Assembly: GCF_001687625.2 (NCBI RefSeq)
Contig: NZ_CP016538.2
Coordinates: 1,580,501-1,644,500 of the forward strand
Direction of reading: 5' to 3'
Origin: Planococcus maritimus
GTDB taxonomy: Bacteria > Bacillota > Bacilli > Bacillales_A > Planococcaceae
DNA: 64,000 nucleotides
Position 1 is the first letter of the stretch, and every line of letters starts with the position of its first letter. Positions 12,166 through 37,776 of this stretch are shown in pieces. The translations under genes were made by a program, and so were the position numbers. Below the pieces are notes generated by a model that saw nothing but the letters and a program-made list of their open reading frames with translations, had not been told where the DNA came from and made no database searches.

Positions 12166-12248
12166 GCAGTCGTTAGAAAAGTTTAGTATTGATTGGAAGG
12201 TAAGTAAAAAGGCAATTCGATAAAATATAAGTTAGAGGAGGCTGAAAA

Positions 12249-12761: not shown

Positions 12762-12847
12762 TGGCGCTTGGCCAATACGCCTGGGAATAGGAGTGAAAAA
12801 TTAATTATGAGCTTAGATACATAATTGAAATTCGGGGAGGTAAGCAA

Positions 12848-13636: not shown

Positions 13637-13718
13637 ATCGAACTACACGGCGATTGAATGGTATCGCTTTAAAGAAGCGCTATCCATTAACAATAATTAG
13701 CCTCGAGGAGACAAGAGT

Positions 13719-14186: not shown

Positions 14187-14234
14187 ATACAAAAAAGACA
14201 CGAAATTCACATTTGAATTTCGTGTCTTTGTATG
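14187..14234. terminator. Bidirectional terminator between convergent GNAT and DUF2268 genes
   Basis: Stem AAGACACGAAATTC / GAATTTCGTGTCTT, with A6 on the left and T-rich sequence on both reading directions. Confidence 0.88.
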
Positions 14235-14273
14235 GGTTAGGTACAATTAAAGAATCAGTTAGCTATTTGAAAA

Positions 14274-17233: not shown

Positions 17234-18982
17234 ATGAGCATGAATCAACCAATCATGGACTCCATGAAGGAAAAATTGAAATTTGTTTATGGTGCAAACA
17301 CCGCCGACTATATTGCTGGCGATATCGAAGAGTTAATGAGCAATTACCGAGATCTTATTCCGCCTCAAGAAGATAAAGGGGACTTTGTTTCCGAGAAAGA
17401 CGTTTTATTGATTTCTTATGGGGATACGGTAAGTCAACCAGGCGAAGTTCCGTTGCAGAGCCTAAGGGAGTTCCTTAAAACCCATTTGAAAGATACTATC
17501 ACGGGCGTCCACGTCTTACCCTTTTATCCATTTAGTTCAGATGATGGGTTTTCGGTAATTGACTATTTCACGGTCAATCCGGAACTTGGGGAGTGGAAGG
17601 ACATTGAAGGGCTTGCCGAAGATTTTGATGTCATGTTCGATGCCGTTATTAACCACATTTCAGCCGGCAGCGAATGGTTTCAATCGTACTTGAAGGGCGA
17701 TGCCCAATACCAAGAATTTTTCACGGAAGCCGACCCGGAAGCTGATTATAGCCAAGTGACCCGTCCGCGGGCCTTGCCGCTATTAACGAAGTTCGAGACG
17801 GTAGAGGGGCCGAAGTTTATTTGGACGACCTTCAGTGAAGACCAAATCGATTTGAATTACCGCAATCCGAAGCTGTTTTTGAAAATGATCGAGTTATTGT
17901 TGTTCTACATCAGCAAAGGGGCCAAGCTGATCCGATTGGATGCGATCGGATTCATGTGGAAAGAATCAGGGACCAATTGCATCCACTTGGACGAAACTCA
18001 TAAACTGATCCAAGTGATGCGCGACATTGTGGATATGCTTGCGCCCGATACGATTCTCGTCACGGAAACAAATGTACCGCACAAAGACAATATCAGCTAT
18101 TTTGGGAACGGTTACAATGAAGCGCGGATGGTTTATCAATTCCCATTGCCGCCGCTTACGCTCCATACGTTTTTAACAGGCAACACTAAGCATATTCACC
18201 AATGGGCACATACCATGGAAGAGACGACTCCGTCCACGACATTTTTCAACTTCCTGGCGTCTCATGATGGAATCGGCATGCGTCCGGCAGAGGGAATTCT
18301 AGCAAATGAAGAAGTAAACTTCCTCGTTAGAAAAGCGGAGGAATTTGGGGGCAATGTCTCTTATAAAGACAATGGGGATGGCACTAAGAGTCCTTATGAA
18401 TTGAATATCAATTACTTCGATGCGCTTTCACATCCTGAAGATCCGGATGAGACCAAAGTGAAACGATTCATCGCAGCACAGTCTTTGCTATTGTCGATGG
18501 CAGGGGTTCCCGGCATTTATCTGCACAGTTTGCTAGGTTCTCGTAATTACACGGAAGGTGTCGAAAAAACCGGCCGTTTCCGTTCGATCAATCGTGAAAA
18601 GCTAAACCGAGAAAACTTGGAAGCTGAACTTGCAGACCCATCGTCTATCCGCCACCAAGTCTTATCCCAAATGAAACAAATGATCGAGTTGCGGAAAAGG
18701 GAAAGTGCTTTTCACCCGAATAGTTTGCAGGAAATATTGTTTTTGAAAGATGAAGTCTTTTCGATGGTACGGACAAATCGAATTCACGAGGAAGAAAAAA
18801 TAGTCGTCTTGATCAATGTGACCAACCATGCACAAGAACTTGAAGTCCCTATCGAACAAAATGCTCAAACCGTTCGGGATCTTGTGGCTGGCGATAGGCT
18901 GCCAATCATACAAAATAAAGTTAAGACCCGACTTAAGCCGTATCAAGTGATGTGGCTAAAACCCGGGGGTGGCCAAAAATGA
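17234..18982 (+). CDS. GH13_18 sugar phosphorylase, probably glucosylglycerate phosphorylase
   Basis: This 582-aa protein is of the sucrose-phosphorylase subfamily of GH13. Visible are the VLPFYPFSSDDGFSVIDY entry motif, the nucleophile segment LIRLDAIGFMWK, the acid/base segment TETNVPHKDN, and LASHDGIG. Sucrose phosphorylases are about 480-510 aa; at 582 aa this fits the longer group including glucosylglycerate phosphorylase (YcjM-like). Next to a glycerate kinase, the likely reaction is glucosylglycerate + phosphate to glucose 1-phosphate + D-glycerate. GAAGGGGG precedes the ATG; its stop overlaps the next start (ATGA). A sucrose or sucrose-6-phosphate substrate cannot be excluded. Confidence 0.85.
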   Translation: MSMNQPIMDSMKEKLKFVYGANTADYIAGDIEELMSNYRDLIPPQEDKGDFVSEKDVLLISYGDTVSQPGEVPLQSLREFLKTHLKDTITGVHVLPFYPFSSDDGFSVIDYFTVNPELGEWKDIEGLAEDFDVMFDAVINHISAGSEWFQSYLKGDAQYQEFFTEADPEADYSQVTRPRALPLLTKFETVEGPKFIWTTFSEDQIDLNYRNPKLFLKMIELLLFYISKGAKLIRLDAIGFMWKESGTNCIHLDETHKLIQVMRDIVDMLAPDTILVTETNVPHKDNISYFGNGYNEARMVYQFPLPPLTLHTFLTGNTKHIHQWAHTMEETTPSTTFFNFLASHDGIGMRPAEGILANEEVNFLVRKAEEFGGNVSYKDNGDGTKSPYELNINYFDALSHPEDPDETKVKRFIAAQSLLLSMAGVPGIYLHSLLGSRNYTEGVEKTGRFRSINREKLNRENLEAELADPSSIRHQVLSQMKQMIELRKRESAFHPNSLQEILFLKDEVFSMVRTNRIHEEEKIVVLINVTNHAQELEVPIEQNAQTVRDLVAGDRLPIIQNKVKTRLKPYQVMWLKPGGGQK

Positions 18983-20139
18983 AAATCATGATTGCTCCGG
19001 ATTCGTTTAAAGGCTCAGTTTCGAGTACACAAGCAGCACTGGCCATCGACCGGGGGATTCGGGAAGTAGACCCAGCCATCGAGACCGTTCTTTTGCCGAT
19101 GGCTGATGGTGGAGAAGGAACAGTTGACGCCATTCTTTGGAATCGTGGCGGCAAAAAAATAAGCTGTTCTGCAGAAGACCCCATTGGCCGGAATATCGAA
19201 GCTTATTATGGCTGGATAGCTGAAGAAAAAATGGCAATCATCGAAACGGCCGCTGCCTCGGGTTTGCCTTTATTGAAAAAGGAAGAATTGGACCCATACA
19301 AGGCGTCAAGTTTTGGCACGGGGCAGCTCATCGTCGATGCACTTGAACGAGGTGCTGAAACGATTGTTCTCGGTCTTGGCGGAAGCGCTACCGTGGATGC
19401 GGGAATCGGACTTTTTCAAGCACTTGGCCTCAAGTTTTTCGATGTCCAGCACAAAGAATTGCCTAGAATTGGCGGCCAGCTTTCTCGCGTGGCAAGTTTG
19501 GATGCTTCTGCGCTTCACCCGAAGCTGTCTTCTTTAAAGCTAATTGTCGCTTCTGATGTCACAAACCCATTGCTCGGGGAAAGTGGAGCGACCGCTATTT
19601 TCGGACCGCAAAAAGGGGTTTCTAATAACCAGCTAGCTTCAGTGGAACAAGGCATGGAGCAGTTTTCTCGTTTAGTTGTAAAGGCAACGGGTGAAGACCA
19701 TATACAAAAGCCGGGCAGTGGAGCGGCAGGAGGAATCGGCTTCATGCTGTATTCATTCCTACACGCGGAATTTCGAAATGGGCTGGAAATGATAGCGGAA
19801 ATATCTCAACTGGAAAAACGCTTACTAGAATGCGACCTAGTCCTGACAGGAGAAGGAAAAATCGATGGCCAATCGCTATATGGAAAAGTTCCTGTGGGCA
19901 TCGGCCGGGCCGCCTTGAAAAACAATATTCCTGTCATCGCTTTCGCTGGTGCAGTTGGGGAAGGCATCGAACGGCTTGAAGAAGAAGGCGTAACGGCCGT
20001 GATGGTGATAGGCGAACGGCCGATGCCTTTAGAAGAGGCGATGCTGCGGGGCGAGGAATTATTGTATGAATCCGCAAAACGTTTGATGAAACTGTTAAGC
20101 ATCGGCATAAAGTATGGAGGGGAAGCAAAAAATGAATAA
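18979..20139 (+). CDS. glxK: Glycerate kinase (GlxK/GarK family)
   Basis: This 386-aa type-1 glycerate kinase phosphorylates D-glycerate, usually to 2-phosphoglycerate. The start MKIMIAPDSFKGS, the MADGGEGTVDA motif, GLGGSATVDAGIG and DLVLTGEGKIDGQS are all diagnostic. ATG 18979 overlaps the phosphorylase stop (ATGA); an upstream in-frame extension lacks a ribosome binding site. The tight coupling to the phosphorylase indicates that glycerate is the released aglycone. Confidence 0.93.
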   Translation: MKIMIAPDSFKGSVSSTQAALAIDRGIREVDPAIETVLLPMADGGEGTVDAILWNRGGKKISCSAEDPIGRNIEAYYGWIAEEKMAIIETAAASGLPLLKKEELDPYKASSFGTGQLIVDALERGAETIVLGLGGSATVDAGIGLFQALGLKFFDVQHKELPRIGGQLSRVASLDASALHPKLSSLKLIVASDVTNPLLGESGATAIFGPQKGVSNNQLASVEQGMEQFSRLVVKATGEDHIQKPGSGAAGGIGFMLYSFLHAEFRNGLEMIAEISQLEKRLLECDLVLTGEGKIDGQSLYGKVPVGIGRAALKNNIPVIAFAGAVGEGIERLEEEGVTAVMVIGERPMPLEEAMLRGEELLYESAKRLMKLLSIGIKYGGEAKNE

Positions 20140-21754
20140 TTTTTCGACGATCGATTTTGTGGTCCTAATTGTATATATTATCGGCATTGCCATTTTCGGC
20201 GCGTTTTTCGGCAAAAACCAAAAGACCACAAAAGACTACTTTTTAGGTGGCAGAAGCATTCCTTGGTGGGCGATCGGTTTGTCCGTCATGGCGACGCAAG
20301 CCAGTGCCATTACGTTCATTGGTGCACCGGGCTGGGGCTACTCAGGCGGGTTGGAGCGGATCAATACGTATATTAACGTACCGCTCGTCATGGCATTTTT
20401 GATGGTCACCATTGTCCCATTCTTTTACCGTACGGAAGTGTACACGGCTTACGAATATTTAGAACGGCGCTTTGATGTCAAAACCCGTTCCTTGACGGCT
20501 GGGCTCTTTTTAATCGCCCGCGGATTGGCAACGGGCGTTGTATTATATGCACCAGCTTTAGTGTTATCGGTGGTAACGGGTTGGGATGTCAACCTTACGA
20601 TCATTTTCATGGCGGTTATCGCCGTAAGTTATACGGTGCTTGGGGGGATTTCGGCTGTTATCTGGACAGATGTCATTCAAATGTTTGTTCTCTGGCTGGG
20701 TGCAGCTCTCGCTATCTTCACCATCATCGGCAATATTCCCGGTGGCTTGTCCGGCGCAATCGATATCGGCGCAGAAGCCGGATTATTGCAATCCTTGGAT
20801 TTCAGCTTTGATTTATCAACAGAATACAGCATATGGGCCGGCGTGATCGGCGGGTTCTTCCTTCATGCTGCGTATTTTGGAGCTGACCAAAGCCAAATTC
20901 AACGGGTATTGACCAGTAAATCCTTAAAAGAAAGTAAAATGTCGTTAATCATTAGCGGGCTCTTCTTGTTTCCGCAAATGTTGTTATTCTTGTTCATCGG
21001 TGTTTTGCTATTCGCTTTCTATTCTGTTCAAGGTACACCAGATATTGAAAATTTAAACGAGTTGTTCCCATTGTTCGTCGTCAATCAATTGCCTGTAGGG
21101 ATTTCAGGATTGATCATTGCAGGGGTTTTCGCTGCGGCGATGTCGAGCTTGGATTCGGCTCTTAATTCATTATCGGCAGTCACCGTGCGTGACTTTTATG
21201 CCAAGTTCTTTAAGAAGGATGCTTCAGAAGGCCATTACTTAAAAGCATCGCGTTGGGCCACTGTCGCTTGGGGCATTTACGCGACAATCTTTGCCTTTTT
21301 CGCGGGCAATCTTGGGCCGGTTATTGAAACGGTCAATAAAATCGGCTCGTATTTCTACGGCGCCCTACTAGGTGTGTTCCTACTGGCGATCTTTGTCCGC
21401 CGTTCAAACGGCCATGGGGCATTCGCCGGTGTTATCGCCGGGATGGCTTCTGTCTGGGCAGTGGAAACTTTCGCAGATATTTCGTGGCTTTACAATAATG
21501 CCGTCGGGGCAATTGTAGCGGTCGTGATTGGGTACGGGGTTAGTTTGCTTTCAGCTGCTCCCGGAAAAGGCAAATTGGACGGCCTTGTCTATAGAGGCGA
21601 GGACACCGTACAAGATGAGCTGAGACGCCGGCAAACCGCTGCTGAAAGTGCCCAATTTGAAAAAGATGTGAAAACGATGAAAAAATGGCCTTTCTTATTA
21701 ATCGGGTACTTCTTCATCACCATAGTGATTTTGTTAGTCATTCAAACTTTGTAG
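20132..21754 (+). CDS. Sodium:solute symporter (SSS family)
   Basis: A 540-aa transporter with about 13-14 helices. SSS hallmarks are the N-terminal KTTKDYFLGGRSIPWWAIG and ATQASAITFIGAPG, with a central AAMSSLDSALNSL stretch lining the Na+ site. GGAGGGG is upstream of ATG 20132, which overlaps the glycerate kinase stop by 8 bp. In this operon it is the obvious uptake system for the glucoside consumed by the phosphorylase; substrate specificity is inferred from context only. Confidence 0.9.
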   Translation: MNNFSTIDFVVLIVYIIGIAIFGAFFGKNQKTTKDYFLGGRSIPWWAIGLSVMATQASAITFIGAPGWGYSGGLERINTYINVPLVMAFLMVTIVPFFYRTEVYTAYEYLERRFDVKTRSLTAGLFLIARGLATGVVLYAPALVLSVVTGWDVNLTIIFMAVIAVSYTVLGGISAVIWTDVIQMFVLWLGAALAIFTIIGNIPGGLSGAIDIGAEAGLLQSLDFSFDLSTEYSIWAGVIGGFFLHAAYFGADQSQIQRVLTSKSLKESKMSLIISGLFLFPQMLLFLFIGVLLFAFYSVQGTPDIENLNELFPLFVVNQLPVGISGLIIAGVFAAAMSSLDSALNSLSAVTVRDFYAKFFKKDASEGHYLKASRWATVAWGIYATIFAFFAGNLGPVIETVNKIGSYFYGALLGVFLLAIFVRRSNGHGAFAGVIAGMASVWAVETFADISWLYNNAVGAIVAVVIGYGVSLLSAAPGKGKLDGLVYRGEDTVQDELRRRQTAAESAQFEKDVKTMKKWPFLLIGYFFITIVILLVIQTL

Positions 21755-21763
21755 GTGGCGAGT

Positions 21764-22306
21764 ATGGAAAAATTGATGGTACAAGCAACGATATCGAAAG
21801 AGCAAGCAGCCAGCCATGTGTATCGCCATCGCAAAAACTTCATCATGCGATGGAGCCAGCTATTTGCGGAGCCTGAAGTGCCGGTGTCTATGGAATTGTT
21901 ATACTTGCCTTACTGGTGTTATGATTATCAATATCAAAGTGCCGAAATAAACAAGAAAATCAGTGGCAAGGTAGCTGTTGAAACCTGGAAACAGCACACG
22001 GCAATTCTTCCAGACAATGCACAGGTATTGCCATTGGCAGATGGATTTTCTCTATTGAAAGCTTCCGGTTCCCCGGACCCTGAATATGCCCGAAAACAGT
22101 TGTACTGGGAAGCTTTTGGCCGCGAGAAAAAAAGAAAAAGTATCCAGATTGAAATCACGGATACCAATCTATTGTATGCGCCGTACTGGATAGTTTACGT
22201 GGAGGGCAAGCAAGTCGACATTGTTGTCGTGGATGCGATGACAGGAAAAATTGATTTAGGAATGAAAGAGGCTGTGATGCACGCCATTATGGCTTCAAGA
22301 GAGTAG
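21764..22306 (+). CDS. Hypothetical protein in the glycerate-kinase operon
   Basis: A 180-aa soluble protein. It has two recurring PYW elements (LPYWCYDY near residue 47 and YAPYWIVYV near 143), which suggests an internal duplication of a beta-rich fold. I do not recognise the family. The start ATG 21764 follows AGGTGG; the upstream in-frame GTG is less well placed. It is directly downstream of the symporter (9 bp) and ends at a short hairpin, so it is probably co-transcribed and may modulate transport. Confidence 0.75.
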   Translation: MEKLMVQATISKEQAASHVYRHRKNFIMRWSQLFAEPEVPVSMELLYLPYWCYDYQYQSAEINKKISGKVAVETWKQHTAILPDNAQVLPLADGFSLLKASGSPDPEYARKQLYWEAFGREKKRKSIQIEITDTNLLYAPYWIVYVEGKQVDIVVVDAMTGKIDLGMKEAVMHAIMASRE

Positions 22307-22330
22307 GACTGTCTATTAGACAGTCCTTTC
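22306..22330 (+). terminator. Short hairpin after the operon's fourth gene
   Basis: GGACTGTC / GACAGTCC with a 5-nt loop and TTTCT; the weak T tract suggests partial readthrough into the CdaR gene. Confidence 0.6.
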
Positions 22331-22362
22331 TGCATTTATCCTGAAATTTAGAGGAGGATTCC

Positions 22363-23532
22363 ATGGCCAGTTTTTTAAAAAATATAGCAGAGCAAATTGT
22401 AGTGGAAATCGAAAAAATCATTGGGCGGCATGTGAACATCATGGATGAAGACGGCCAAATTATCGCAAGCACCGACGCCAGCCGGGTAGGGAGTTTTCAC
22501 GAAGGGGCTGTGACGGTCCTTAGGGAAGGAAAGCCGGTCCGCATCTATTCGGAACAAAGCCATCGCGGCGCTAAACAAGGGGTGAATATGCCGTTTTATT
22601 ACAAAGAAGAATTGCACGGCGTCATTGGAATAACCGGTGATCCGTCCGAGGTTGGGAACTATACAAAAATCATTCAGAAGATGACCGAAGTGATGGTCAA
22701 AGAAGCTTATGTAAGCCGTGAACTGGAATTGGAGCAGCGCTTTCAGGAATTATTTGTTCACGAGTGGTTATTGAAACAATGGTCATCAACCGATGATTTT
22801 GTGATCAGGGGCAAGACTTTATCCATTGACCTCGAAGCAAACAGGCAAGTGCTGATGTTCGAAGTGAAAGAACTGCGCGACAAACCAATGTCGCAAACCT
22901 TCAGGCAGGAAAAAATCAATGCAGTGATGGGGAAAGTCGGAGAAATGCTAGATATAAAAGAAAACGATTTGCTGGTACTGTGGCAGTCCCATCAATTTGT
23001 ACTGTTGAAATCCATGCAGGAAGATTCATTGCCCCTTAATGCAAATCAATTACAGCGGGTATTGGAAACTTATAATGAACACGAGTTAACGGTTCAATGC
23101 GGAATCGGCAGGAGCCACAACGGCTTGCTTGGGGCCGTTGAGTCTTTTGAGGACGCCAGGCAAGCCTTGATCTTCGCTCAAAAGAAAAAAGAAGCGGCTG
23201 TTTCTTTTTACGATCTGGGAATCGAGTCATTGGTTCACAAAATACCCGATGAATTAAAAGAAGATTTCATTGAACGGCTCTTTCCCATTTTCAATGAGCA
23301 AGAGCATCAGCAATTACTGGAAACGCTAAGGGCTTTCTTAGACCACGGACAAAGCATTTACAAGACCAGCGAGTCTCTCTTTATTCATAAAAACACCTTG
23401 CAATACCGCTTGCTGAAAATCAAAAAGCTCACAGGCTACGATCCGAGAACTTTCCAGGATGCCGTGCTTTGCTGGCTGGCCTTCAATTTTTATGACCATT
23501 TGAAGGACCAACAAGACAGCTCGGAAGATTGA
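22363..23532 (+). CDS. cdaR: CdaR-type sugar-diacid/glycerate transcriptional regulator
   Basis: This 389-aa protein has an N-terminal putative sugar-diacid-recognition domain (about 1-135), a central GGDEF-like CdaR domain and a C-terminal PucR-type helix-turn-helix (KTSESLFIHKNTLQYRLLKIKKLTG). E. coli CdaR responds to glycerate/glucarate-type acids. Here it closes the operon making glycerate, so a D-glycerate-induced circuit is likely. GAGGAGG precedes the ATG. Confidence 0.9.
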   Translation: MASFLKNIAEQIVVEIEKIIGRHVNIMDEDGQIIASTDASRVGSFHEGAVTVLREGKPVRIYSEQSHRGAKQGVNMPFYYKEELHGVIGITGDPSEVGNYTKIIQKMTEVMVKEAYVSRELELEQRFQELFVHEWLLKQWSSTDDFVIRGKTLSIDLEANRQVLMFEVKELRDKPMSQTFRQEKINAVMGKVGEMLDIKENDLLVLWQSHQFVLLKSMQEDSLPLNANQLQRVLETYNEHELTVQCGIGRSHNGLLGAVESFEDARQALIFAQKKKEAAVSFYDLGIESLVHKIPDELKEDFIERLFPIFNEQEHQQLLETLRAFLDHGQSIYKTSESLFIHKNTLQYRLLKIKKLTGYDPRTFQDAVLCWLAFNFYDHLKDQQDSSED

Positions 23533-27963: not shown

Positions 27964-28619
27964 CTAGAGCGTTTCCTCTAACTTCTGCATTTTTGAGTGG
28001 GAAAGCACGTATATATCACCAAAAACATCAATTTTATCTGCCTTTATGCGCAGTGCACAATCCTTATTCGATGCATACACTTTCATTTCTTCTGATAGGG
28101 AGGAGAGTTCGCTTTGAACTAGTGCCATGTTATTTTCAAGATTAAAGTGAGACAGAATAGAAAAATTGCCAAGATCATTCCGTTGTAGACAGCGTCTTCT
28201 TCAACTGAATAGCCGAAGCTTTTTGTACCTAGCCACTTAGCTGCCATATTGATCGCACCAGCGCTTGCCCCAATAACAACGGCATTGGTTTTTCGGATAC
28301 ACTCCGGCAATCCATAAGCCATCAAAAATTCGTTCTGTTTGAGCGTATCGCCACCCAGTAAAAAAATAACCGAAGCATGTTGAATAAGTGCATGGGCAGC
28401 ATCTTTCTCTACGCGATAATTGATCAAATGGTAATCAGCGAACGCAATACCGGCATGGTCAAGCCAGGAGCGTTCAGTAGCACCATCTGCTTCATTGTCT
28501 AAGGGAGTAGAGCTAATCATCACAAGCGATTTTCTATCCGTAATATCCTCCCGTAACACTTGGCTTAGGCGCTCGGGGAACATGTCGGTAAACCAGCCTA
28601 AATAATATTGAGTATTCAT
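27964..28619 (-). pseudogene. Peptidase E (S51 family) with a single-base frameshift
   Basis: From ATG 28619 the frame encodes a peptidase S51-type protein with FLLGGDTLKQNE and the nucleophile GASAGAINMA, then runs into unrelated hydrophobic residues after VYNG. Shifting frame at about 28177 restores family-like sequence (NDLGNFSILSHFN, containing the catalytic histidine) through to a stop at 27964-27966, giving about 217 aa, the normal length. One lost A in a GGAAATGAT-like run explains it. It is either a real inactivating mutation or a sequence error. GAGAGG precedes the ATG; it lies 12 bp downstream of the acetyltransferase. Confidence 0.8.
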
Positions 28620-29066: not shown

Positions 29067-29130
29067 AGAAAAACCTCCTGTTTGGCATTTAGTTTATTTT
29101 GAACTCTAGTTTTTGAGAGGTACCCTCAAG

Positions 29131-29319
29131 CTATTTCTTTAAACCTCTGTCCAAATTGTGTTCATACTTAGTTTCAAGGAGGTGGAAAACGAAAAATGTT
29201 ATGAGGATAATGGTTGGAGTTGAGCTGTGCTTTATTATTCCGAAGTATGGCAAGATCATTGATAAAAGTATCAATATTGTTGTTACGCATCGAACAATAA
29301 TAAAATGTTTATGATCCAA
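29131..29319 (-). CDS. Small membrane protein (62 aa)
   Basis: Two transmembrane helices (about residues 8-28 and 34-50) and a charged tail. TTG 29319 is preceded by AGGAGGAAG with 7-nt spacing, which decides the unusual start. Function unknown; it is the last core-like gene before the AT-rich island. Confidence 0.6.
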   Translation of the reverse strand: MDHKHFIIVRCVTTILILLSMILPYFGIIKHSSTPTIILITFFVFHLLETKYEHNLDRGLKK

Positions 29320-29500
29320 TTAACTTCCTCCTTGTCTTTCTATAAATATACCATCTAAGTATAGAAATTAGAGGATTATCTTTACTAAAATCACGTTATA
29401 TAGAAAAATTTGAAATTTTATGATTTTAAAGGCACAATAATGAAGTAGAGATTATTTAACGGAATAATTTCATTATTTTATAAATTGAGGTGAGATATTT

Positions 29501-32089
29501 ATGTGGGCTGATGATGCTTCTAAAATTGATATGCTTGCGTATCGACCATATGCGGATTTAATTACTGAGATTGCTATTAGCGAGCGAATGAACCCATTAA
29601 CTATAGGGTTGTTCGGCAATTGGGGGAGTGGCAAATCGACTTTACTAAATTTAATAGAAGAACAGAGTGCTACTCAAGTAGATAAAAAAATTGCAGTAGT
29701 TAAAGTAAATGCCTGGATGTTTGAAGGTTATGAGGATGCAAAGACTGCTTTAATGGAAGCAATATTACAAAGTATGAAGGAAAATCAAACATTTTTTGAA
29801 GGTTCAACAGATAGAATCAAAGGTTTAATGGCAAGAGTTAATTGGATGGGCATAGGAAAAACAGCTTTAAAACAAGGCGTTCCATTGGCTATTAGTGGAA
29901 TGACAGGATTACCTCCCTTTATAATGCTGCCTAATGCAACGGATTTCGAGAGTCCAGAAAAAGTTCAAGAACAGATTGAAAAATCTAGAAAATTGACAGA
30001 TGAATACATGAAAACAAATCCCAAAGAAAATGTTGTTGAAAATATTAGAGGGTTCCGCGAAGATTTTAATACCTTAATTGAAGAATCTTCCGTAGATAAT
30101 CTGGTTATTCTAATAGATGATTTGGATAGATGTAACCCAGATAGAATTGTCGAAACACTTGAAGCAATAAAGTTATTTCTATCAGTACCAAGAACGACCT
30201 TTATAATTGCGATGGATGAAAATATAGTTTCTTATTCTATAAAAAGAAAGTATCCTCAGTTAGACAATGAAGGCATAGATGTTTCAGTTGATTACATAGA
30301 AAAAATTGTTCAACTTCCTATCAGGATTGCGGAATTAGCAGAAAGTGATGTCAAAAACTATATGTTGCTGCTTGTTGCAGAAATGTTTTTGGAAGCAGAC
30401 TCGTTAAATCAACTGATTGAAATACTTAAGGAGAAAGGTGTATTTGTTAAAGGAGAAATAATTTCTGGTTCAGAGATATTGACTATAGTGGAAGATCAAG
30501 TAAAAGTGAAAGGTTCAAAATTTAGAAGAGGTACGACTCAAGAAAATTTCGAACAACAAATGAATATATTTAATAGCATAGGTAGTATTGTTGCCTCCTC
30601 ATTAAAAGGAAATCCACGTCAAACTAAGAGATTTTTAAATACTTTTTACATCCGTAAGAGGCTAGCGGAAATTCAAAAAATAGACTTTAATTTATCGATA
30701 CTAGCTAAATTAATGGTATTAGAATATTTTGATGGTGACCTATTTAAAGAATTATTTCAATGGCAATTCGAACATAGTGGAACGCCATTACAGTTAAAAA
30801 TTCTTGAAGAAGAGATGTTGAAAGAAGAAGAGAGTGAAATTTTTAAACTCGACAAGATAACAAAAAATACAGCATGGTCGGGAGAAAAGGTGAAAAGATG
30901 GTTCGGAACTGAGCCAAAGTTAGCTGATGTTGATCTTTCACCTTATTTTTATTTAGCAAAAGATTCAGTTTCAGATAAAAGACTATTCTCTACTAACTTA
31001 AATCAGGAAGAAAGAAAGTATATTAATCAAATATGTAACCTTGAAACACACATAGCATTAAGGAGAAAGAAAATCGAGAAAATGCATGAGATGGATGAAG
31101 TATCAAGAAATGAAATTTTTAAAGGTGTATTAGAGAGATACCACCAAGATATCAAGCAAATAGACACATTAATTGAATTCTATAAAATCCTTCCCCAGTA
31201 TAAATCAAAAATCTTTGAAGAATTTAAAAGGATTAGCTCAAAAGATGTAACCGTGCCTATAATTATCACCCTCAATCAGCTTGATGAGGATTCGTTTCAG
31301 AAATTAAGAAAACATTATATTGAAGAGAAAAAAGTAGATAAGAAACTTTGGGATGTAGTGGGGGATAAAGTGGGAACATCAAAAGGTTATTTACCGCCAA
31401 CAGGATACTTATGGCCGGATGTAAAACGAGAAGTAACGAAAATGGTGAGAGACAACCTCTCTTCTGATTCAATAAACAAGGCTATATCTAGCTTCGCAAA
31501 AGCTTTAAACAACTCTACTAGTGTAGGTTCTAATACAGGAAAGGCTATACAATCAAGTGGTAAAGCAATTAGTTTTATTAATTCTGTGAAGAGATACGGG
31601 TTCTCTGAAACTTTGGATAGATTTGGTTTATCCTTTCTAAAAAATGAGAATCCCGATAATCTGCGAAAAGGACTCCTGAAATATTTTAGTGATGGCGGAA
31701 ATGAATTTTACGAAAACATCTCTAGTCAAAGTATGAATGAGCTTTTGAGAGAAATCTTTACAGGAGTAAATGAAGTTAATGAATACGAAGAAATATTGAA
31801 AAATATAGATACAGCAGATTTTATTAGAGAGTTTATAATTAAATTTATACAAAATTGTTTCTTTTCTAATTTCACGGAAAAACTTTTAGGCTTATTTGAT
31901 AACCTAAATAAATATGAGGTGGCTGAAAAAAGTATCAAAACACATATTAGAAATTCAATCGAAAAGAAATACTCATTAAAAAAAATTCAAGATATAGACT
32001 GGAACGGACAAGAAGGAAATGTAATATTAAATGACACGTATAGAAATTCCCTAGAAATTCTTTCTGCTTGGAGTGAATTAGGTGATTAA
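29501..32089 (+). CDS. qatA: QatA KAP-type P-loop ATPase fused in frame to QatB
   Basis: An 862-residue frame. Residues 1-623 form a KAP-family NTPase: Walker A GNWGSGKS (39-46), a hydrophobic insertion (about 127-143) and Walker B LVILIDDLDRC (201-211). From residue 624 the sequence turns into a QatB-like part beginning VGTSKGYLPPTGY, then GKAIQSSGKAISF and a helical region to the end. In the Qat anti-phage system QatA and QatB are normally separate genes. A GTG with a GGGGGA upstream sits exactly at the junction (31370). It is followed with overlap by QueC-like and TatD-like genes. Strongly AT-rich, indicating horizontal acquisition. Confidence 0.87.
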   Translation: MWADDASKIDMLAYRPYADLITEIAISERMNPLTIGLFGNWGSGKSTLLNLIEEQSATQVDKKIAVVKVNAWMFEGYEDAKTALMEAILQSMKENQTFFEGSTDRIKGLMARVNWMGIGKTALKQGVPLAISGMTGLPPFIMLPNATDFESPEKVQEQIEKSRKLTDEYMKTNPKENVVENIRGFREDFNTLIEESSVDNLVILIDDLDRCNPDRIVETLEAIKLFLSVPRTTFIIAMDENIVSYSIKRKYPQLDNEGIDVSVDYIEKIVQLPIRIAELAESDVKNYMLLLVAEMFLEADSLNQLIEILKEKGVFVKGEIISGSEILTIVEDQVKVKGSKFRRGTTQENFEQQMNIFNSIGSIVASSLKGNPRQTKRFLNTFYIRKRLAEIQKIDFNLSILAKLMVLEYFDGDLFKELFQWQFEHSGTPLQLKILEEEMLKEEESEIFKLDKITKNTAWSGEKVKRWFGTEPKLADVDLSPYFYLAKDSVSDKRLFSTNLNQEERKYINQICNLETHIALRRKKIEKMHEMDEVSRNEIFKGVLERYHQDIKQIDTLIEFYKILPQYKSKIFEEFKRISSKDVTVPIIITLNQLDEDSFQKLRKHYIEEKKVDKKLWDVVGDKVGTSKGYLPPTGYLWPDVKREVTKMVRDNLSSDSINKAISSFAKALNNSTSVGSNTGKAIQSSGKAISFINSVKRYGFSETLDRFGLSFLKNENPDNLRKGLLKYFSDGGNEFYENISSQSMNELLREIFTGVNEVNEYEEILKNIDTADFIREFIIKFIQNCFFSNFTEKLLGLFDNLNKYEVAEKSIKTHIRNSIEKKYSLKKIQDIDWNGQEGNVILNDTYRNSLEILSAWSELGD
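31370..32089 (+). CDS. qatB: QatB, possible separate product from an internal in-frame start
   Basis: GTG 31370 is codon 624 of the long frame; GGGGG at 31360-31364 lies 5 nt upstream and could serve as ribosome binding site. Initiation here gives a 239-aa protein starting MGTSKGYLPP, with a glycine exposed after methionine removal. As I remember the family, QatB proteins open with such a Gly-Thr-Ser sequence. Adding one G to the G5 run would close qatA at TAA (reading GGA TAA) and leave this GTG as the qatB start. So the fusion may be a one-base deletion, a sequence error, or a true nested gene. Confidence 0.55.
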   Translation: MGTSKGYLPPTGYLWPDVKREVTKMVRDNLSSDSINKAISSFAKALNNSTSVGSNTGKAIQSSGKAISFINSVKRYGFSETLDRFGLSFLKNENPDNLRKGLLKYFSDGGNEFYENISSQSMNELLREIFTGVNEVNEYEEILKNIDTADFIREFIIKFIQNCFFSNFTEKLLGLFDNLNKYEVAEKSIKTHIRNSIEKKYSLKKIQDIDWNGQEGNVILNDTYRNSLEILSAWSELGD

Positions 32090-33509
32090 TATATGGATTA
32101 ATAAAAACACAAATGATTTTAGTACAAACGACTCTCCAAAAGAGCAGTTTCTTCTATTTAACTTATACGATAAAAAGAATAAATCAAATGTTAAAACTGA
32201 TATGGAACAACTGTGGAGAAGGTTTGGTGAAGAAAGTTTATCGCTTATTAATGAAGATTTCCTCATAATTGCTGCAAGTATTTTTTGCGCCGATAAAAGA
32301 ATTCCACGAAAAAACTTTTCAGACAATTGGACAAGAAAAATGAAATTATCAATACCTGTATTTGAACTAGAAAAATGGGATTCTGTTAAAAAAGAACTTG
32401 AGTATACAATCGGATTTTTAAGTGGGGATGATTGGACTTTCGAATTTCGACATAGTAGTACAAGGTTCAGAACTGATAAACTGAATTCGCAAAATCTGAT
32501 TTCTAAGGACAAGTACGATTCAGTTAGTTTGTTTTCTGGAGGATTGGATTCTTTTTGCGGTGCGCTAACACTTTCTGAAGAAGAAAATAATACTTTGTAT
32601 CTTGGTTTTAGAGAATACAGCCTTTTAAAGAAGCGACAAACAGATTTATTTAATTCGATAAATAATGAATATCCTGATTTAAATAATGAATTGCTTCTAT
32701 TTAATGTAAATCCATTAGCCCCGGTTCAGAAGGGGGAAGAGTCAATAAAACTTTCTGTTGAAAGTACTAGTAGAAGTAGATCTTTGTTATTCATAGCAGG
32801 TGCAATTTCTGCGGCGTCAATTATAGGAAAGAAGACACCAGTATATATTCCTGAGAACGGTTTCATCGGCGTGAACGTTCCCCTTACTGATAGTAGAGCA
32901 GGAAGCTGCAGTACTAGAACTACACATCCTCTTTTTATAAGCAAGTTAAATAAGATTTTTGAAAAAGTCGGCATTGAAAATAGAGTTTCAAACTTTTATT
33001 GGAATAAATCAAAGGGAGAAATATTAGAAGAACACCAAGAAAATATCGTTTTTAAAAAATATGCACATCAAACTTTATCTTGCTCACATCCCTGTCTGTC
33101 ACGTTACGATAAAAAGAAGAGTGCAAGAGTTCAGACACCTTGCAATTGCGGTTATTGTTATCCCTGCCTAATTAGAAAGGCATCTTTCGCAAAAATAGGA
33201 GAAGATAGAACGTGTTACAATCCTTTATATGAATTGAGCAGAGACTTTATTTTAAATCATAATAATCTTCAAGGGAGAGCTAGTGATTTGAAAGCCGTTC
33301 TTTTTAGCTTAAAAAGGTATGTTAATCATAAAGAAGATCGAGAGTACATTAGAAGTCTTTTACTAAAACAAGGCCCTTTGACAAGTGAAGAATTGGATGG
33401 GTATGAAAGGGTATATCGTCAATCCATGGAAGAATTACTTAAGATGGTGGAGAGCAATGACAAAGGGTTAATGGAATATGCAGGTTTAGAGGAAGTCATA
33501 ATAAAATGA
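32082..33509 (+). CDS. qatC: QatC, QueC-like PP-loop enzyme
   Basis: A 475-aa protein. The PP-loop ATPase motif SGGLDS (152-157) and a cysteine cluster (C334, C338 and CNCGYCYPC at about 354-362) match QueC, the 7-cyano-7-deazaguanine synthase. QatC-type proteins carry an extra N-terminal region, here about 140 residues. GTG 32082 overlaps the QatB stop; TTGGAG is upstream. QueC-like enzymes in defence loci (Cap9 of type IV CBASS) attach a deazaguanine to a partner protein N-terminus; a similar role on QatB is an inference. Confidence 0.88.
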   Translation: MINIWINKNTNDFSTNDSPKEQFLLFNLYDKKNKSNVKTDMEQLWRRFGEESLSLINEDFLIIAASIFCADKRIPRKNFSDNWTRKMKLSIPVFELEKWDSVKKELEYTIGFLSGDDWTFEFRHSSTRFRTDKLNSQNLISKDKYDSVSLFSGGLDSFCGALTLSEEENNTLYLGFREYSLLKKRQTDLFNSINNEYPDLNNELLLFNVNPLAPVQKGEESIKLSVESTSRSRSLLFIAGAISAASIIGKKTPVYIPENGFIGVNVPLTDSRAGSCSTRTTHPLFISKLNKIFEKVGIENRVSNFYWNKSKGEILEEHQENIVFKKYAHQTLSCSHPCLSRYDKKKSARVQTPCNCGYCYPCLIRKASFAKIGEDRTCYNPLYELSRDFILNHNNLQGRASDLKAVLFSLKRYVNHKEDREYIRSLLLKQGPLTSEELDGYERVYRQSMEELLKMVESNDKGLMEYAGLEEVIIK

Positions 33510-34249
33510 GTAACTTATCTGATATGCATATCCATATAGATTACTTTAAAAATTATCAACAGTTCTATAATTCCTTTGAAAACAATAAAATCTACGCTTT
33601 GTTTGTTACTAACTTGCCAGAGATTTTTCGGAAATGTAATAATGAGTTTGCATATAGTAAATACGTTAAACTAAGCTTAGGTTATAACCCTCAGTTGGCT
33701 GGAAAATACAAATTTAATCAAGACCTATTTGATGAATTGCTTCCTCTAACAAAGTATGTCGGTGAAGTAGGATTAGACTACTCTAAGGGTTTTGTCCATT
33801 CTAAGATAGAACAACAAAAGGCGTTCGACTACATTTGTTCTAAGTCTGCACAAACAAAGAAAATAATGTCTATTCATTCCCGCGGTGCCGAAGAAGACGT
33901 GTTAGAGATTTTAAAAGACAATAAGGTTGAATACGCAGTATTTCATTGGTTTTCTGGAAATAAGAAAATTGCATACGACATTATAGATCAAGGTTATTAT
34001 TTTTCAGTGAACTATTCTATGTTAGTTTCAAAAAAAGGTTATGACATTGTTAAGTCTTTACCTTTAGATAGACTTTTATTAGAAACAGACGCGCCCTTTG
34101 CTAAAACAAGTATGAAAGGAAATTCATACAACTTAGCTGAAATTTATTCTGAATTCTCGAGGAAACTAAATATAGAAAAGTTTGAGGAGTTAATTTATAA
34201 AAACTTGATGGATCTATTGCTGAAGCAAAAAAATTCCTTTACTTCCTAG
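33506..34249 (+). CDS. qatD: QatD, TatD-family metal-dependent nuclease
   Basis: This 247-aa TIM-barrel hydrolase has TatD ligands: HIH at residues 8-10, EVGLDY, a central SIHSRGAEED histidine, FHWFSG and LLETDAPF. TatD proteins are DNA exonucleases/deoxyribonucleases. ATG 33506 overlaps the QatC stop (ATGA), completing a four-component Qat locus with overlapping genes. It is the likely nucleic-acid-degrading arm of the defence. Confidence 0.88.
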   Translation: MSNLSDMHIHIDYFKNYQQFYNSFENNKIYALFVTNLPEIFRKCNNEFAYSKYVKLSLGYNPQLAGKYKFNQDLFDELLPLTKYVGEVGLDYSKGFVHSKIEQQKAFDYICSKSAQTKKIMSIHSRGAEEDVLEILKDNKVEYAVFHWFSGNKKIAYDIIDQGYYFSVNYSMLVSKKGYDIVKSLPLDRLLLETDAPFAKTSMKGNSYNLAEIYSEFSRKLNIEKFEELIYKNLMDLLLKQKNSFTS

Positions 34250-34375
34250 TTTTATCAAATTTTTTGTGAGACTTTTTTATTCCGCAGATACCGAATTATT
34301 ATAAGATCTTTTAATAGAATACCCCTATCAAAAACGATGGTTTTTGAAGGGATCTGTAAGAGGGTGAAAACCTGC

Positions 34376-34543
34376 TGTAAATTCAAGCGTCATTATGCAT
34401 TGATTTCAAGTGTTAACTTGCATTTAACATCTCGTTGTTCACTCTTAAACCCTCAAGTAATGTAGATGTTAGGTTACCCTTACAGAAGAAAAACCCTTTT
34501 TCATTCAAAGAAAAGGAGTCGTTTGAAAAAATTCTTCTATATT
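34376..34543. repeat. 168-bp direct repeat, copy A
   Basis: About 80-85% identical by eye to 36643-36812. Shared blocks include TTGATTTCAAGTGTTAACTT and AATGTAGATGTTAGGTT and a hairpin CTTTTTC…GAAAAGGAG. Copy B is the 3' flank and terminator of the serine recombinase gene, so copy A looks like a leftover of a second such element. The gap 34250-34375 holds only a weak CAAAAAC/GTTTTTG hairpin after qatD. Confidence 0.8.
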
Positions 34544-34571
34544 CTACGCGAAAAAAATTGTAAAACTAAAA

Positions 34572-34597
34572 GCTTTGTATAGTTAACTATACAAAGC
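34572..34597. terminator. Perfect 26-bp palindrome, terminator of the leftward operon
   Basis: GCTTTGTATAGTT and its exact complement with no loop, AT-rich flanks; it lies 27 bp beyond the stop of the - strand gene at 34624. Confidence 0.65.
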
Positions 34598-34623
34598 CTT
34601 TAGAATATAGATAAAAATTTTAT

Positions 34624-35382
34624 TTAATTTGCATAATTGTCAATGGATTCGTCATATTTTTCAGTTATTTCTACATAAAAACTCAACTTTTTCTCAGCAC
34701 TGTGTTGAAGTTCTTCATGTTGTTCAGATTCCGTGTGCATCCCATCTTGTGTGTTTTTTAGCAAGTTGTCAAACTCTTCATCTAATTTTTCAACATCAAA
34801 TGTTTCTTCTAATAATAAAATGTCTTCTGGATCGCTCAAAGATTCTGAATTGATGGCTAAATCTCTATGGTCATTTCCATCAATATTAAATTTCCCGAGT
34901 TGATTTCCAATTAAGCTGTACTCACCAAACGTATTTTTCTTTAAGAAAAATATGTAGCCTGCTTCTTTATTTACACTCGTATATTCATCCATCACAAATT
35001 CAAAGCTTTCTCGTTCTTCTTCTATAACACTAGAAGGTTCAATGATGGATAAGAGATCACCTGAATGATAGTTACTTTGATCATTATTTAGAAGAACTTC
35101 GTGTATCTTAATTTCCGTATTAGAGTAAAAATCTTCAATGGACTCGTCTTCACCAGTTTTAATAATATGATCTCGATTGATGAAATCGGCTGTTGGTTCT
35201 CCAATTACTACTAGGTCTGCCATACCTTCTAAATCTTTCATTTCCTCATATGAAATCATGTCACCGTGAACAGAAATGCGTTTTAAGATCTGATCCTCTT
35301 TTGCAAAAGAAAAAGCTGCCACGATCGATGTTATAAGCACCATACTTAGAATAATTTTTGTTTTCTTCCATTTTTTTATCAT
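34624..35382 (-). CDS. Membrane-anchored extracytoplasmic protein next to a secreted protease
   Basis: A 252-aa protein with a basic N-terminus and one hydrophobic helix (about residues 8-24), then a large acidic domain (ADLVVIGEPT, TEIKIHEVLLN, YIFFLKKN) and a glutamate-rich C-terminal tail. AAGGAGGA precedes ATG 35382; the upstream TTG extension is rejected. It starts 17 bp after the metzincin gene stop, so they form an operon; it may be an inhibitor, chaperone or immunity-like partner of that protease. Family not recognised. Confidence 0.72.
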   Translation of the reverse strand: MIKKWKKTKIILSMVLITSIVAAFSFAKEDQILKRISVHGDMISYEEMKDLEGMADLVVIGEPTADFINRDHIIKTGEDESIEDFYSNTEIKIHEVLLNNDQSNYHSGDLLSIIEPSSVIEEERESFEFVMDEYTSVNKEAGYIFFLKKNTFGEYSLIGNQLGKFNIDGNDHRDLAINSESLSDPEDILLLEETFDVEKLDEEFDNLLKNTQDGMHTESEQHEELQHSAEKKLSFYVEITEKYDESIDNYAN

Positions 35383-35399: not shown

Positions 35400-35969
35400 T
35401 TAATTGCCCCATTTAGCCTTTAACTGTCCTTTGTCATATATCGTTGGATACGTATTGGTCGTCCTTCCTTGCTTCATAATAGAGGTTGAACCTGATGAAG
35501 GAGTATGATCAAGTTTTAAGCTATGGCCAATTTCATGAACAGCAGTTGCCGTGCGATTTGTGCTAGTGTAATCGAATTTATCCATATTATTGTCATATAG
35601 ATAAATCCTTGTATAAGTCCATGTACAATCGAGGCAAACACTTCCTCTTGTACCCATTGGCTGCATAAATCCTGTTCGATCAGCGACGCTAGTAGTGCCA
35701 ACATAGTAAGTATCAGTAGTGTAAGAAGCACTCGCCTTTTTTACGCTTACTTTAGTAGAAATGCCATTCCACCGATTAATAGCATTGTTATAAATTGTTG
35801 TATAGCCATAGGTAGCTACAGAACTTGAATAATTAACTTTAGCATGTCCTCCAGTTGACGTTGTTCCGGAATGATAGTCAGCACTTGCAGAAGTAGAAAA
35901 TACAGAGAGAGTAACTAAAACAATTAGAAATATCCTAACTAAAAAAATTTTACCTATCCAATTACACAT
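35400..35969 (-). CDS. Secreted metzincin (M10/matrixin-like) metalloprotease
   Basis: A 189-aa protein. It has a signal peptide (about residues 1-32, ending FSTSASA-DY) and a compact zincin domain with HEIGHSLKLDH (HExxHxxxxxH) and a following SIMKQG methionine turn. A Cys pair (VCLDC) precedes the site. GGGAGG is 9 nt upstream of ATG 35969; the longer upstream opening is not used. Such small secreted matrixin-like proteases may act on host, competitor or matrix proteins. Operon with the anchored protein downstream; the pair lies between direct repeats A and B. Confidence 0.83.
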   Translation of the reverse strand: MCNWIGKIFLVRIFLIVLVTLSVFSTSASADYHSGTTSTGGHAKVNYSSSVATYGYTTIYNNAINRWNGISTKVSVKKASASYTTDTYYVGTTSVADRTGFMQPMGTRGSVCLDCTWTYTRIYLYDNNMDKFDYTSTNRTATAVHEIGHSLKLDHTPSSGSTSIMKQGRTTNTYPTIYDKGQLKAKWGN

Positions 35970-36124
35970 ATTACAAAACCTCCCATTTATTATTTGCATT
36001 AGAATTATAAAACTATTCTTAAAATAAGTAAATAGAAACTTTTTATTTTTTGAAACAAGGACTTTTATACTATTTATAAATTCTGTATTTATATTATATT
36101 TAATGTATTCAGGAGGTGAATCTG

Positions 36125-36535
36125 TTGAAACCATGGTATATACTATGTAGCTTGTTGGTATTAGTACTAATGGGATGCCAAAGCGAATCATTTACATTAA
36201 ACGAAGATATTACACAGATTGAAGTGATAGACCTAGGGGAAGTGTCTCCTTCACCAGAGGTTTATCAAAGTGGTCAAGGCGAAGTGATTAAAAAAATAAC
36301 AAATCAAAAAGAAATAGAAGAAATTATAAAAGAAATAGAAGGCGCAAAAGTAAGTAGCTTAAAAACTAGCAATATTAGTTTACCTATGTATAAAGTAAGA
36401 TTTATTCAAAATGATAATCTTATACTAACGTTAGGGTATTACCCAGCAGATGAAGAAAGAGAACAGAGCTCTTTAATTGATTTAGAAAAGGACTTGCTAT
36501 ATACGACAAAATCTCCTCTCATGCTAATTGAGTGA
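36125..36535 (+). CDS. Lipoprotein of unknown function
   Basis: 136 aa from TTG 36125, 8 nt after AGGAGG. The signal sequence has a lipobox LMGC at about residues 18-21, followed by an acidic domain with a KEIEEIIKEIEGAK helix. The 5' part lies opposite the upstream region of the metzincin gene. Family not recognised; probably divergently expressed with the protease pair inside the repeat-bounded cassette. Confidence 0.68.
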   Translation: MKPWYILCSLLVLVLMGCQSESFTLNEDITQIEVIDLGEVSPSPEVYQSGQGEVIKKITNQKEIEEIIKEIEGAKVSSLKTSNISLPMYKVRFIQNDNLILTLGYYPADEEREQSSLIDLEKDLLYTTKSPLMLIE

Positions 36536-36642: not shown

Positions 36643-36812
36643 TGTAAATTCAAGTGTTATTGTGCATTGATTTCAAGTGTTAACTTGCACCTAAAATCTC
36701 ATTGTTCACTCTTAACCTCTCAATTAATGTAGATGTTAGGTTTCCTTTACAGAAAAAAACACCTCCTTTTTCAATCAAAGAAAAGGAGGCGTTTGAAATT
36801 TTTTTCTATTAT
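36643..36812. repeat. 168-bp direct repeat, copy B
   Basis: Partner of 34376-34543. Similarity stops at the stop codon of the recombinase gene, so the repeat unit is the recombinase 3' flank. Confidence 0.8.
36755..36790 (-). terminator. Terminator of the serine recombinase gene
   Basis: Read leftward: CCTCCTTTT / AAAAGGAGG stem followed by GTTTTTTT, 19 bp beyond the stop codon. Confidence 0.85.
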
Positions 36813-37426
36813 AATGTGTTAACTATCTCTTCTTCGAGCGCTTTTACCAATTTGTAAAAACTGGTCTTTTTAACTCCGGCTTCTTGCATAGCCTGAACTG
36901 CTGTTAATTCTTTGGCTTTCCATTTTCTATAAACCTCTTTGAATTCCTCTGAAATAAAAACGGTCGGTCTGCCAAACTGAATACCATTTTGAAGCGCTAA
37001 GTCGATTCCTTCACGCTGCCGTTTCCGGATGCGTTCCCGTTCCTCTTCTGCCATCCACGAAAGAATTTGCAAAACCAAGTCCGCAATAAATGTCCCCATA
37101 CTATCTTTATACTGGGTCGTATCCAATAGGGGCATATCCAGCACCACAATATCAGCTTCAATATTTTTCGTGAGGTCATTCCACTCCTGAAGGATTTCTT
37201 CTTTATTCCTTCCGAACCGATCCAGCGAATGGATATACAAAATGTCTCCTTTTCGAATAACCCTTTTGAGCAATTGGTAGTTCGCTCGTTCAAAATTTTT
37301 GCCACTTTGCTTGTCCAGATAAATATCCCGTTCATTGATGCCGATTTTTCTCATGGCTTCCAATTGACGGCCTTCATTTTGGTCTTTGCTGCTGACACGT
37401 ATGTAGCCAAATTTGCGATGTTCCAT
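36809..37426 (-). CDS. Small serine recombinase (resolvase/invertase family)
   Basis: This 205-aa protein has the resolvase catalytic domain: YIRVSSKDQNEGRQL with the nucleophile serine near residue 12, SLDRFGRN (about 67-74) and the arm helix with EEERERIRKRQREG. A C-terminal helix-turn-helix (TAVQAMQEAGVKKTSFYKL) follows. GAGGTG precedes ATG 37426. A res-like region with three subsites lies 47 bp upstream, which supports resolvase activity. No transposase is nearby, so it is probably a cassette-borne or plasmid-derived resolvase. Confidence 0.93.
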   Translation of the reverse strand: MEHRKFGYIRVSSKDQNEGRQLEAMRKIGINERDIYLDKQSGKNFERANYQLLKRVIRKGDILYIHSLDRFGRNKEEILQEWNDLTKNIEADIVVLDMPLLDTTQYKDSMGTFIADLVLQILSWMAEEERERIRKRQREGIDLALQNGIQFGRPTVFISEEFKEVYRKWKAKELTAVQAMQEAGVKKTSFYKLVKALEEEIVNTL

Positions 37427-37472
37427 AATTCACCTCTATAAACGATTGTTTCCTCTCATTATACCTGAAAAC

Positions 37473-37595
37473 CGTTCGTAAAAGTGTATGCAATTGAGCG
37501 AACGTTCGTAAAGTCATTTGACACGTTTACGAACACTCTTTTCGACCGTTTTAAGCCCTTTTGAAAGCGTTCGTAAAAGTGTACTTTTACGAACG
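37473..37595. other. Putative res site of the serine recombinase (three subsites)
   Basis: Three inverted pairs of CGTTCGTAAA-type half-sites occur: 37473-37504 (32 bp), 37503-37534 (32 bp) and 37568-37595 (28 bp). The last has 13-bp perfect arms (CGTTCGTAAAAGT) around a central GT, which is exactly the size and 2-bp overlap of a resolvase crossover site I; it is the gene-distal one, as in Tn3-type res sites. Confidence 0.82.
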
Positions 37596-37776
37596 GTTAT
37601 TCAATGTGAAATATTGTAGATTATATTAATTCTTCAAAATGTGTAATTTAATATTGTTATCAACCTAAAAATTACCTACTTAATTCATTCTTCCTTATCA
37701 AGATGTAATGATATAATGATTAAGCCTATTGGGCATATTAAACTAAAAATTCAAGACGCACTCAAAGGAGAATACG

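What the first reader, a model, noticed from the sequence alone, without database searches (positions are those of the whole stretch)
29501..32089. qatA and qatB read as a single frame, with a GTG start exactly at the domain junction
The KAP-ATPase frame runs without a stop into a QatB-like segment starting V-G-T-S-K. The valine codon is GTG at 31370 with GGGGG 5 nt upstream. If the G5 run (31360-31364) were G6, qatA would end at TAA and qatB would start at this GTG, the usual overlapping layout. So this is a natural fusion, a nested gene giving two products, or a one-base indel. It matters because a free QatB N-terminal glycine may be the substrate of the QueC-like QatC, by analogy with Cap9 in type IV CBASS.
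Basis: partly seen in the sequence, partly recalled or inferred. Interest (0 to 1): 0.82.

Follow-up and report, generated by a model that had tools for sequence, protein, structure and literature searches.

The report
One-base gap fuses two defence genes
Two neighbouring genes of a known bacterial anti-phage system read as one here because a single G is missing from a run of Gs where they meet; the nearest relative has the extra G and two separate genes, and the missing letter is most probably a sequencing slip rather than a new kind of protein.

Summary
In detail: window 29501-32089 is one 862-codon frame, QatA (residues 1-623) running into QatB (624-862). GTG 31370 starts V-G-T-S-K, five bases after the G5 run 31360-31364. 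The operon is a complete qatABCD. QatB is identical (11 synonymous codon changes, no others). Of 47 distinct qat loci examined, only the window's QatB runs on from the gene before it. The fusion is thus a one-base loss, not an evolved architecture. Sequencing or assembly error is favoured: among 475 ORFs of a sister species found in this genome, four are frameshifted here by one-base losses, three in or beside G runs; the reverse look-up of 482 ORFs showed none by my reading. Two of the four genes lie in one frame in all 45 other species of the genus searched. A real mutation is not excluded; QatB could then still start at the internal GTG. The essential MGTS glycine is already published (PMC13279940).

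The parts
29501..31369 (+). qatA part of the fused frame (KAP-family P-loop ATPase, residues 1-623)
   Evidence: PADLOC QatA E 3.8e-102 over residues 3-592; Pfam KAP_NTPase E 1.1e-51; NCBIfam QatA E 1.3e-121, 407 bits, below its 600-bit cut-off; 622-aa separate gene in XJ11
31360..31364 (+). G5 run; G6 in the XJ11 plasmid; also the Shine-Dalgarno-like element of qatB
   Evidence: duplex energy -8.4 kcal/mol with a recalled 16S tail
31370..32089 (+). qatB (239 codons plus stop), GTG start, MGTS motif
   Evidence: PADLOC QatB E 4.1e-10; 100% identical to the separately annotated XJ11 protein WP_068465681.1; profile of 17 relatives matches the solved QatB 9zee_A at E 3.1e-16
32082..33509 (+). qatC (QueC-like), overlaps the end of qatB by 8 bases
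   Evidence: PADLOC QatC E 1.8e-101; NCBIfam QatC 354.8 bits, cut-off 280; PDB QatC 9zee_B E 1.1e-55
33506..34249 (+). qatD (TatD-family nuclease)
   Evidence: PADLOC QatD E 1.8e-56; Pfam TatD_DNase E 2.6e-40
29360..34376 (+). whole unit shared with the XJ11 plasmid (96.7%); ends where a direct repeat begins

Best explanation
This is an ordinary qatABCD anti-phage operon. The joined qatA-qatB frame is the result of one missing G in a G6 run that overlaps the last codons of qatA, and the missing G is most probably a sequencing or assembly error. In the living strain QatA (about 622 aa) would then end at TAA, and one base later QatB would start at GTG, using the same G run as its ribosome-binding site, probably coupled to termination of qatA. 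Removal of the start methionine would expose the glycine that QatC is thought to modify. Shown: the G5 frame, the G6 relative, the absence of a fusion in the other loci examined, and frameshifts by one-base loss in other genes of this assembly. Inferred: that the strain itself carries G6, the translational coupling, and the modification.
For: (1) XJ11 plasmid NZ_CP059541.1: 97.3% over the full 4749 nt; the only gap within the operon is one G at this run, and the record annotates two genes there. (2) Of 47 distinct loci with an MGTS-type QatB start before a QatC-like frame, the window alone is fused; a second one flagged by the script, L126, has its annotated qatA in another frame than qatB. 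(3) A same-genus system (L004) has the TAA-A-GTG layout with a GTG start. (4) qatB is 100% identical to XJ11's with 11 synonymous changes and dN 0. (5) Of 475 sister-species ORFs found in this genome, four are frameshifted here by one-base losses; one loss is G5 to G4, two lie in or beside runs of four or five G (the identity of the missing base is not known there), one is not in a G run. Of 482 ORFs looked up the other way, four showed a frame change: two are the same losses in this genome and two lie in 5' extensions by my reading. (6) The DHH/DHHA1 gene and the methyltransferase gene are each one continuous match in 45 of 45 other species of the genus and split in this genome alone. In the 14 and 5 of those species where the match holds a stop, all stops lie in the first 21 residues, before the conserved start. 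(7) The methyltransferase break is also a G5 before ATA. (8) Isolated one-base G/C gaps: 47 lacking here, 28 lacking in the sister, two-sided p 0.037.
Against: No reads and no second strain of the species are held. The assembly is a single contig scored 100% complete with 0.08 contamination. GGGGGGATA stands as G6 at five places in this genome, and G6/C6 runs occur 13 times in 264 kb, so G6 is not lost wholesale. A/T one-base gaps show no excess (62 here, 75 in the sister). Four frameshifts against none is one-sided p 0.06 if both genomes were alike, and one of the four (in the window) was noticed before the count. The four could be true mutations. XJ11 is another strain, so a true G5 here is possible.
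Confidence: 0.77

Rival explanations
1. Real, recent one-base deletion. The strain makes an 862-aa QatA-QatB fusion, and also some free QatB by initiation at the internal GTG with its GGGGG ribosome-binding site. Only the free form can present the N-terminal glycine to QatC.
For: The GTG keeps the MGTS motif and an SD duplex of -8.4 kcal/mol; 57.5% of 426 ORF first starts are as strong or stronger, but only 3.7% of 2665 internal in-frame GTGs. QatA loses nothing but its last residue and stop. Nested in-frame starts serve another defence system: Cas11 from within cas8/cas10 (PMC11899642, passages).
Against: No other of 47 loci is fused. The same assembly lacks single bases in other conserved genes. 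Without a stop before GTG, translating ribosomes would cover the start site (inference).
Confidence: 0.16
2. The deletion is real and inactivates or weakens the system: a fused QatB with no free N-terminus cannot be modified, so the operon is decaying.
For: The QatB N-terminal glycine is essential in P. aeruginosa Qat (PMC13279940).
Against: qatC and qatD are open, and qatB has dN 0 against XJ11. The internal start is intact.
Confidence: 0.05
3. Slippage switch: the G run varies between G5 and G6, or the ribosome slips at it, so cells alternate between separate and fused proteins.
For: G5 and G6 are both on record; in the G6 form a +1 slip would give the window's frame (read from the sequence).
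Against: The run is not conserved: L008, L009, L010, L024 and L036 have other sequence there. G6 is short for phase variation (general knowledge).
Confidence: 0.02

Closest known systems
qatABCD anti-phage system (solved QatB/QatC entries 9zee, 9zef, 9vlk, 9vll)
   Same: Gene order A-B-C-D, KAP ATPase, MGTS-start QatB, QueC-like QatC with SGGLDS, the TRTTHP stretch and aligned cysteines, TatD-family QatD
   Different: qatA and qatB are in one frame in this assembly; QatB scores far below the NCBIfam cut-off (33 of 100 bits), QatA and QatD also below theirs, so this is a divergent branch
Planococcus maritimus XJ11 plasmid qat operon (NZ_CP059541.1)
   Same: 97.3% identical operon, identical QatB
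   Different: G6 instead of G5; two genes
Type IV CBASS Cap9 / CD-NTase deazaguanylation
   Same: QueC-like enzyme with a partner that has a free N-terminal glycine (PMC13279940)
   Different: QatC replaces the nucleobase-binding Tyr/Asp by Thr/Thr, and its product is unknown (PMC13279940)
Nested small subunits of CRISPR type I (Cas11 within cas8/cas10)
   Same: A second product from an in-frame internal start with an SD-like site
   Different: There supported by mutation and mass spectrometry (PMC11899642, passages); here hypothetical

Membership tests
qatABCD system | qatA: KAP-family P-loop ATPase | tested here: met
   PADLOC QatA 3.8e-102, Pfam KAP_NTPase 1.1e-51; NCBIfam equivalog below its cut-off (407 of 600 bits)
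qatABCD system | qatB: MGTS N-terminus plus helical domain | tested here: met
   M1 G2 T3 S4 invariant in 17 aligned sequences, the window's GTG read as M; their profile matches solved QatB, E 3.1e-16; NCBIfam QatB below its cut-off
qatABCD system | qatC: QueC-like enzyme with ATP loop and Thr/Thr | tested here: met
   SGGLDS and CSTRTTHP align with 9zee_B; NCBIfam QatC above its cut-off
qatABCD system | qatD: TatD-family nuclease | tested here: met
   NCBIfam QatD 207.8 bits, below its 230 cut-off
qatABCD system | qatA and qatB as separate genes (layout in relatives) | tested here: not met
   One frame in this assembly; not fused in any of the 46 other distinct loci
qatABCD system | Anti-phage activity | not testable with these tools
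   Needs a plaque assay
Natural QatA-QatB fusion family | Fused frame conserved in relatives | tested here: not met
   None of 46 other distinct loci; nearest relative is two genes
Nested-gene (Cas11-like) arrangement | Internal start with ribosome-binding site | tested here: inconclusive
   GTG with GGGGG, -8.4 kcal/mol; use of the start not testable

The most novel reading that the evidence does not exclude
The G5 frame is real. This strain carries a natural QatA-QatB fusion with qatB nested inside it, so one message yields a full-length fusion that tethers the ATPase to QatB with a buried N-terminus, and free QatB with the glycine that QatC modifies. The ratio of the two would set how much QatB can be activated.
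Probability: 0.14. Interest if true: 0.55.

Novelty: not a real feature. Interest (0 to 1): 0.2.

Why it matters
Taken at face value, the 862-aa protein would enter databases as a QatAB fusion and mislead work on whether QatB needs a free N-terminus, a central open question for Qat. That the nearest relative keeps the two genes apart with the same GTG fits the published view that a free MGTS terminus is required. It also flags other probably broken frames in this assembly. If the fusion were real, it would be a natural test of that requirement.

Tried and rejected
Rejected: a conserved fusion (no second case among 47 distinct loci). Rejected: wholesale loss of G6 in this assembly (G6 runs and GGGGGGATA are present), so the error argument rests on frameshifts in conserved genes.

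Rows set aside in the frameshift count (frame changes only): the 234-aa ORF (a C6 to C5 loss in what I read as a 5' extension), the 495-aa and 343-aa ORFs (5' extensions; here too this genome is the shorter one), and the 558-aa ORF (a 2-base gap in the sister near the 5' end). These judgements are by eye. The script left out ORFs under 120 aa, matches under 80% identity or 80% coverage, and frame changes spread over more than the ORF length plus 300 nt (number not printed). Premature stops were counted only (315 and 318 ORFs): four stop rows in this genome and three in the sister, one of them window ORF 4400-5230. Of these I looked at one, which reads like a spurious ORF; the rest were not examined.

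Led nowhere: viral contigs (6 pattern matches, no relative); phages (QatB none; QatC two partial Listeria phage hits, 27.6% over 66%, not followed). A 21.8% Aliarcobacter plasmid QatB hit was not followed. The promoter and terminator scan gave no more than shuffles. No structure prediction was run, since it would not decide between G5 and G6. Literature: searches list no title or abstract start that speaks of a QatA-QatB fusion; in the text held, 'fusion' and 'fused' are absent from PMC13279940, and the one 'fusion' in PMC13329287 concerns another QueC relative. The library lacks most subscription papers.

Survey bookkeeping: 54 sources given, 5 without an MGTS-type start (L037, L041, L042, L043, L123), 2 duplicates (L012, L013), leaving 47 including the window. 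L005 and L020 were not given (L005 is the other piece of a split locus with L007; L020 holds only the start of qatA). The script tested whether the QatB frame runs on upstream; it did not check that a qatA lies upstream in each. Of 122 plasmid records with a QatC match, 14 were fetched.

Full report
What is there. The frame 29501-32089 is open for 862 codons. The G run 31360-31364 is five Gs, then ATAAA, then GTG at 31370. PADLOC places QatA on residues 3-592 and QatB on the part after the GTG; qatC (32082-33509) and qatD (33506-34249) follow. The operon is therefore a complete qatABCD system with qatA and qatB in one frame. Pfam supports A and D and gives QueC just under its cut-off for C (20.7 of 22 bits); NCBIfam names all four, but only QatC passes its cut-off, QatB scoring 33 of 100 bits. 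A profile of 17 relatives finds the solved QatB chain 9zee_A (E 3.1e-16) and chain 9vll_A, deposited under another name (E 8.2e-14).

The nearest relative. A plasmid of Planococcus maritimus XJ11 carries the operon at 97.3% identity over all 4749 nt. In a global alignment the only gap inside the operon is one G at the junction: GTAATGGGGGGATAAAGTG there, GTAGTGGGGGATAAAGTG here. The record's genes are qatA 12001-13869 and qatB 13871-14590 of locus L044, the latter from the same GTG. QatB is 100% identical with 11 synonymous changes; dN/dS is 0.18 for qatA, 0 for qatB, 0.04 for qatC and 0.15 for qatD.

Survey. I collected loci by protein search in genome contigs, by the QatC profile in 60, 261, 398 and 398 genomes, with overlap, and by QatC in plasmids, 14 records fetched of 122. 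Of 54 sources examined, 47 are distinct and have an MGTS-type start followed by a QatC-like frame; the start codon is ATG in 40, GTG in 5 and TTG in 2. Only the window is fused. A second locus, L126 of Delftia, has 101 open codons upstream, but its annotated qatA ends in another frame. The homologues L008, L009 and L010 have a stop just before the ATG. A same-genus but distant system, L004, has TAA, A, GTG, the layout of XJ11.

Error or mutation. I compared the window's genome with G147, a sister species (95% identical over 17234-23532), in which no qatAB match was found (the tool notes that an empty answer alone shows nothing). In 475 G147 ORFs found in this genome, four are broken within their coding part here: a DHH/DHHA1 gene in its GGGGH motif, a methyltransferase, the S51 peptidase at window 28119-28619, and a 903-aa protein that I take from recall to be a class A penicillin-binding protein. 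All four are one-base losses in this genome. One is G5 to G4; the DHH and methyltransferase breaks lie in or beside runs of four or five G, where the missing letter itself is not known; the S51 break is not in a G run. The methyltransferase break, like the qat junction, reads G5 before ATA. Of 482 ORFs looked up the other way, four showed a frame change: two are the S51 and 903-aa losses again and two lie in 5' extensions by my reading, so none is a coding frameshift in G147. The DHH gene and the methyltransferase gene are each one continuous match in 45 of 45 other species of the genus and split only here; the stops inside 14 and 5 of those matches all lie in the first 21 residues, ahead of the conserved start. 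Isolated one-base G/C gaps are 47 here against 28 in G147 (p 0.037), A/T gaps 62 against 75. Against this, G6 stands elsewhere in the genome, the assembly is one complete contig, and four against none is only p 0.06. I weigh error at about 0.77 and a real deletion, in all its forms, at about 0.23.

If the deletion is real. QatA loses only its last residue and stop. The GTG retains a Shine-Dalgarno-like GGGGG: duplex energy -8.4 kcal/mol with a recalled 16S tail, reached by 98 of 2665 internal in-frame GTGs and by 57.5% of 426 ORF first starts in the same 664 kb; the XJ11 site gives -9.3. Free QatB could thus still be made, as Cas11 is from within cas8 (PMC11899642, passages seen), though without the nearby stop that allows coupling.

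What is known. PMC13279940 (parts 1-3 of 6 read; passages) shows that QatB and QatC form the minimal defence unit, that QatB has a disordered tail with a conserved MGTS start, that G2D abolishes defence, and that the QatC reaction could not be reconstituted. PMC13329287 (passages) describes QatC as a divergent QueC. The type IV CBASS deazaguanylation paper was seen as a search listing only (PMC11996544). The window's QatC keeps SGGLDS and the TRTTHP stretch aligned with 9zee_B.

Setting. Similarity to XJ11 covers 29360-34376, starting about where similarity to G147 stops (29375) and ending exactly at the first copy of a 153-156 nt direct repeat (34376-34528 and 36643-36798, 88%), so the operon looks like a transferable unit in a variable spot.

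Noticed in passing
28119-28619: S51-family peptidase frameshifted by one base against the sister species, ending it at 166 instead of 218 aa.
   Followed up: yes
G000 1291776-1292791, 1452728-1453473 and 1816460-1819194 (outside the window): DHH/DHHA1 gene, methyltransferase gene and a 903-aa probable penicillin-binding protein (name from recall), each broken by a one-base loss in or beside a G run; the first two are one continuous match in all 45 other species searched.
   Followed up: partly
34376-34528 and 36643-36798: Direct repeat of about 155 nt (88%) flanking 2.1 kb with a matrixin-like ORF (35400-36191, just under the Pfam cut-off), beside a resolvase gene (36809-37426). The first copy starts exactly where similarity to the XJ11 plasmid ends.
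   Followed up: partly
29360-29375: Switch point: left of it the chromosome matches sister species G147 (97%), right of it the operon matches the XJ11 plasmid; G147 contig C4 has about 1.6 kb without a match there before a 78% match to 37331-37612.
   Followed up: partly
4400-5230: A 276-aa ORF of the window shows a premature stop in sister species G147.
   Followed up: no
L005 and L007 (G036): A qat operon in another Bacilli genome has its qatC match in two pieces about 3 kb apart, with an ORF between that looks like a transposase-type protein by eye.
   Followed up: no
31447-31461: The only terminator-like hairpin found in 29100-34700 lies in early qatB, but the count is below the shuffled mean.
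   Followed up: no
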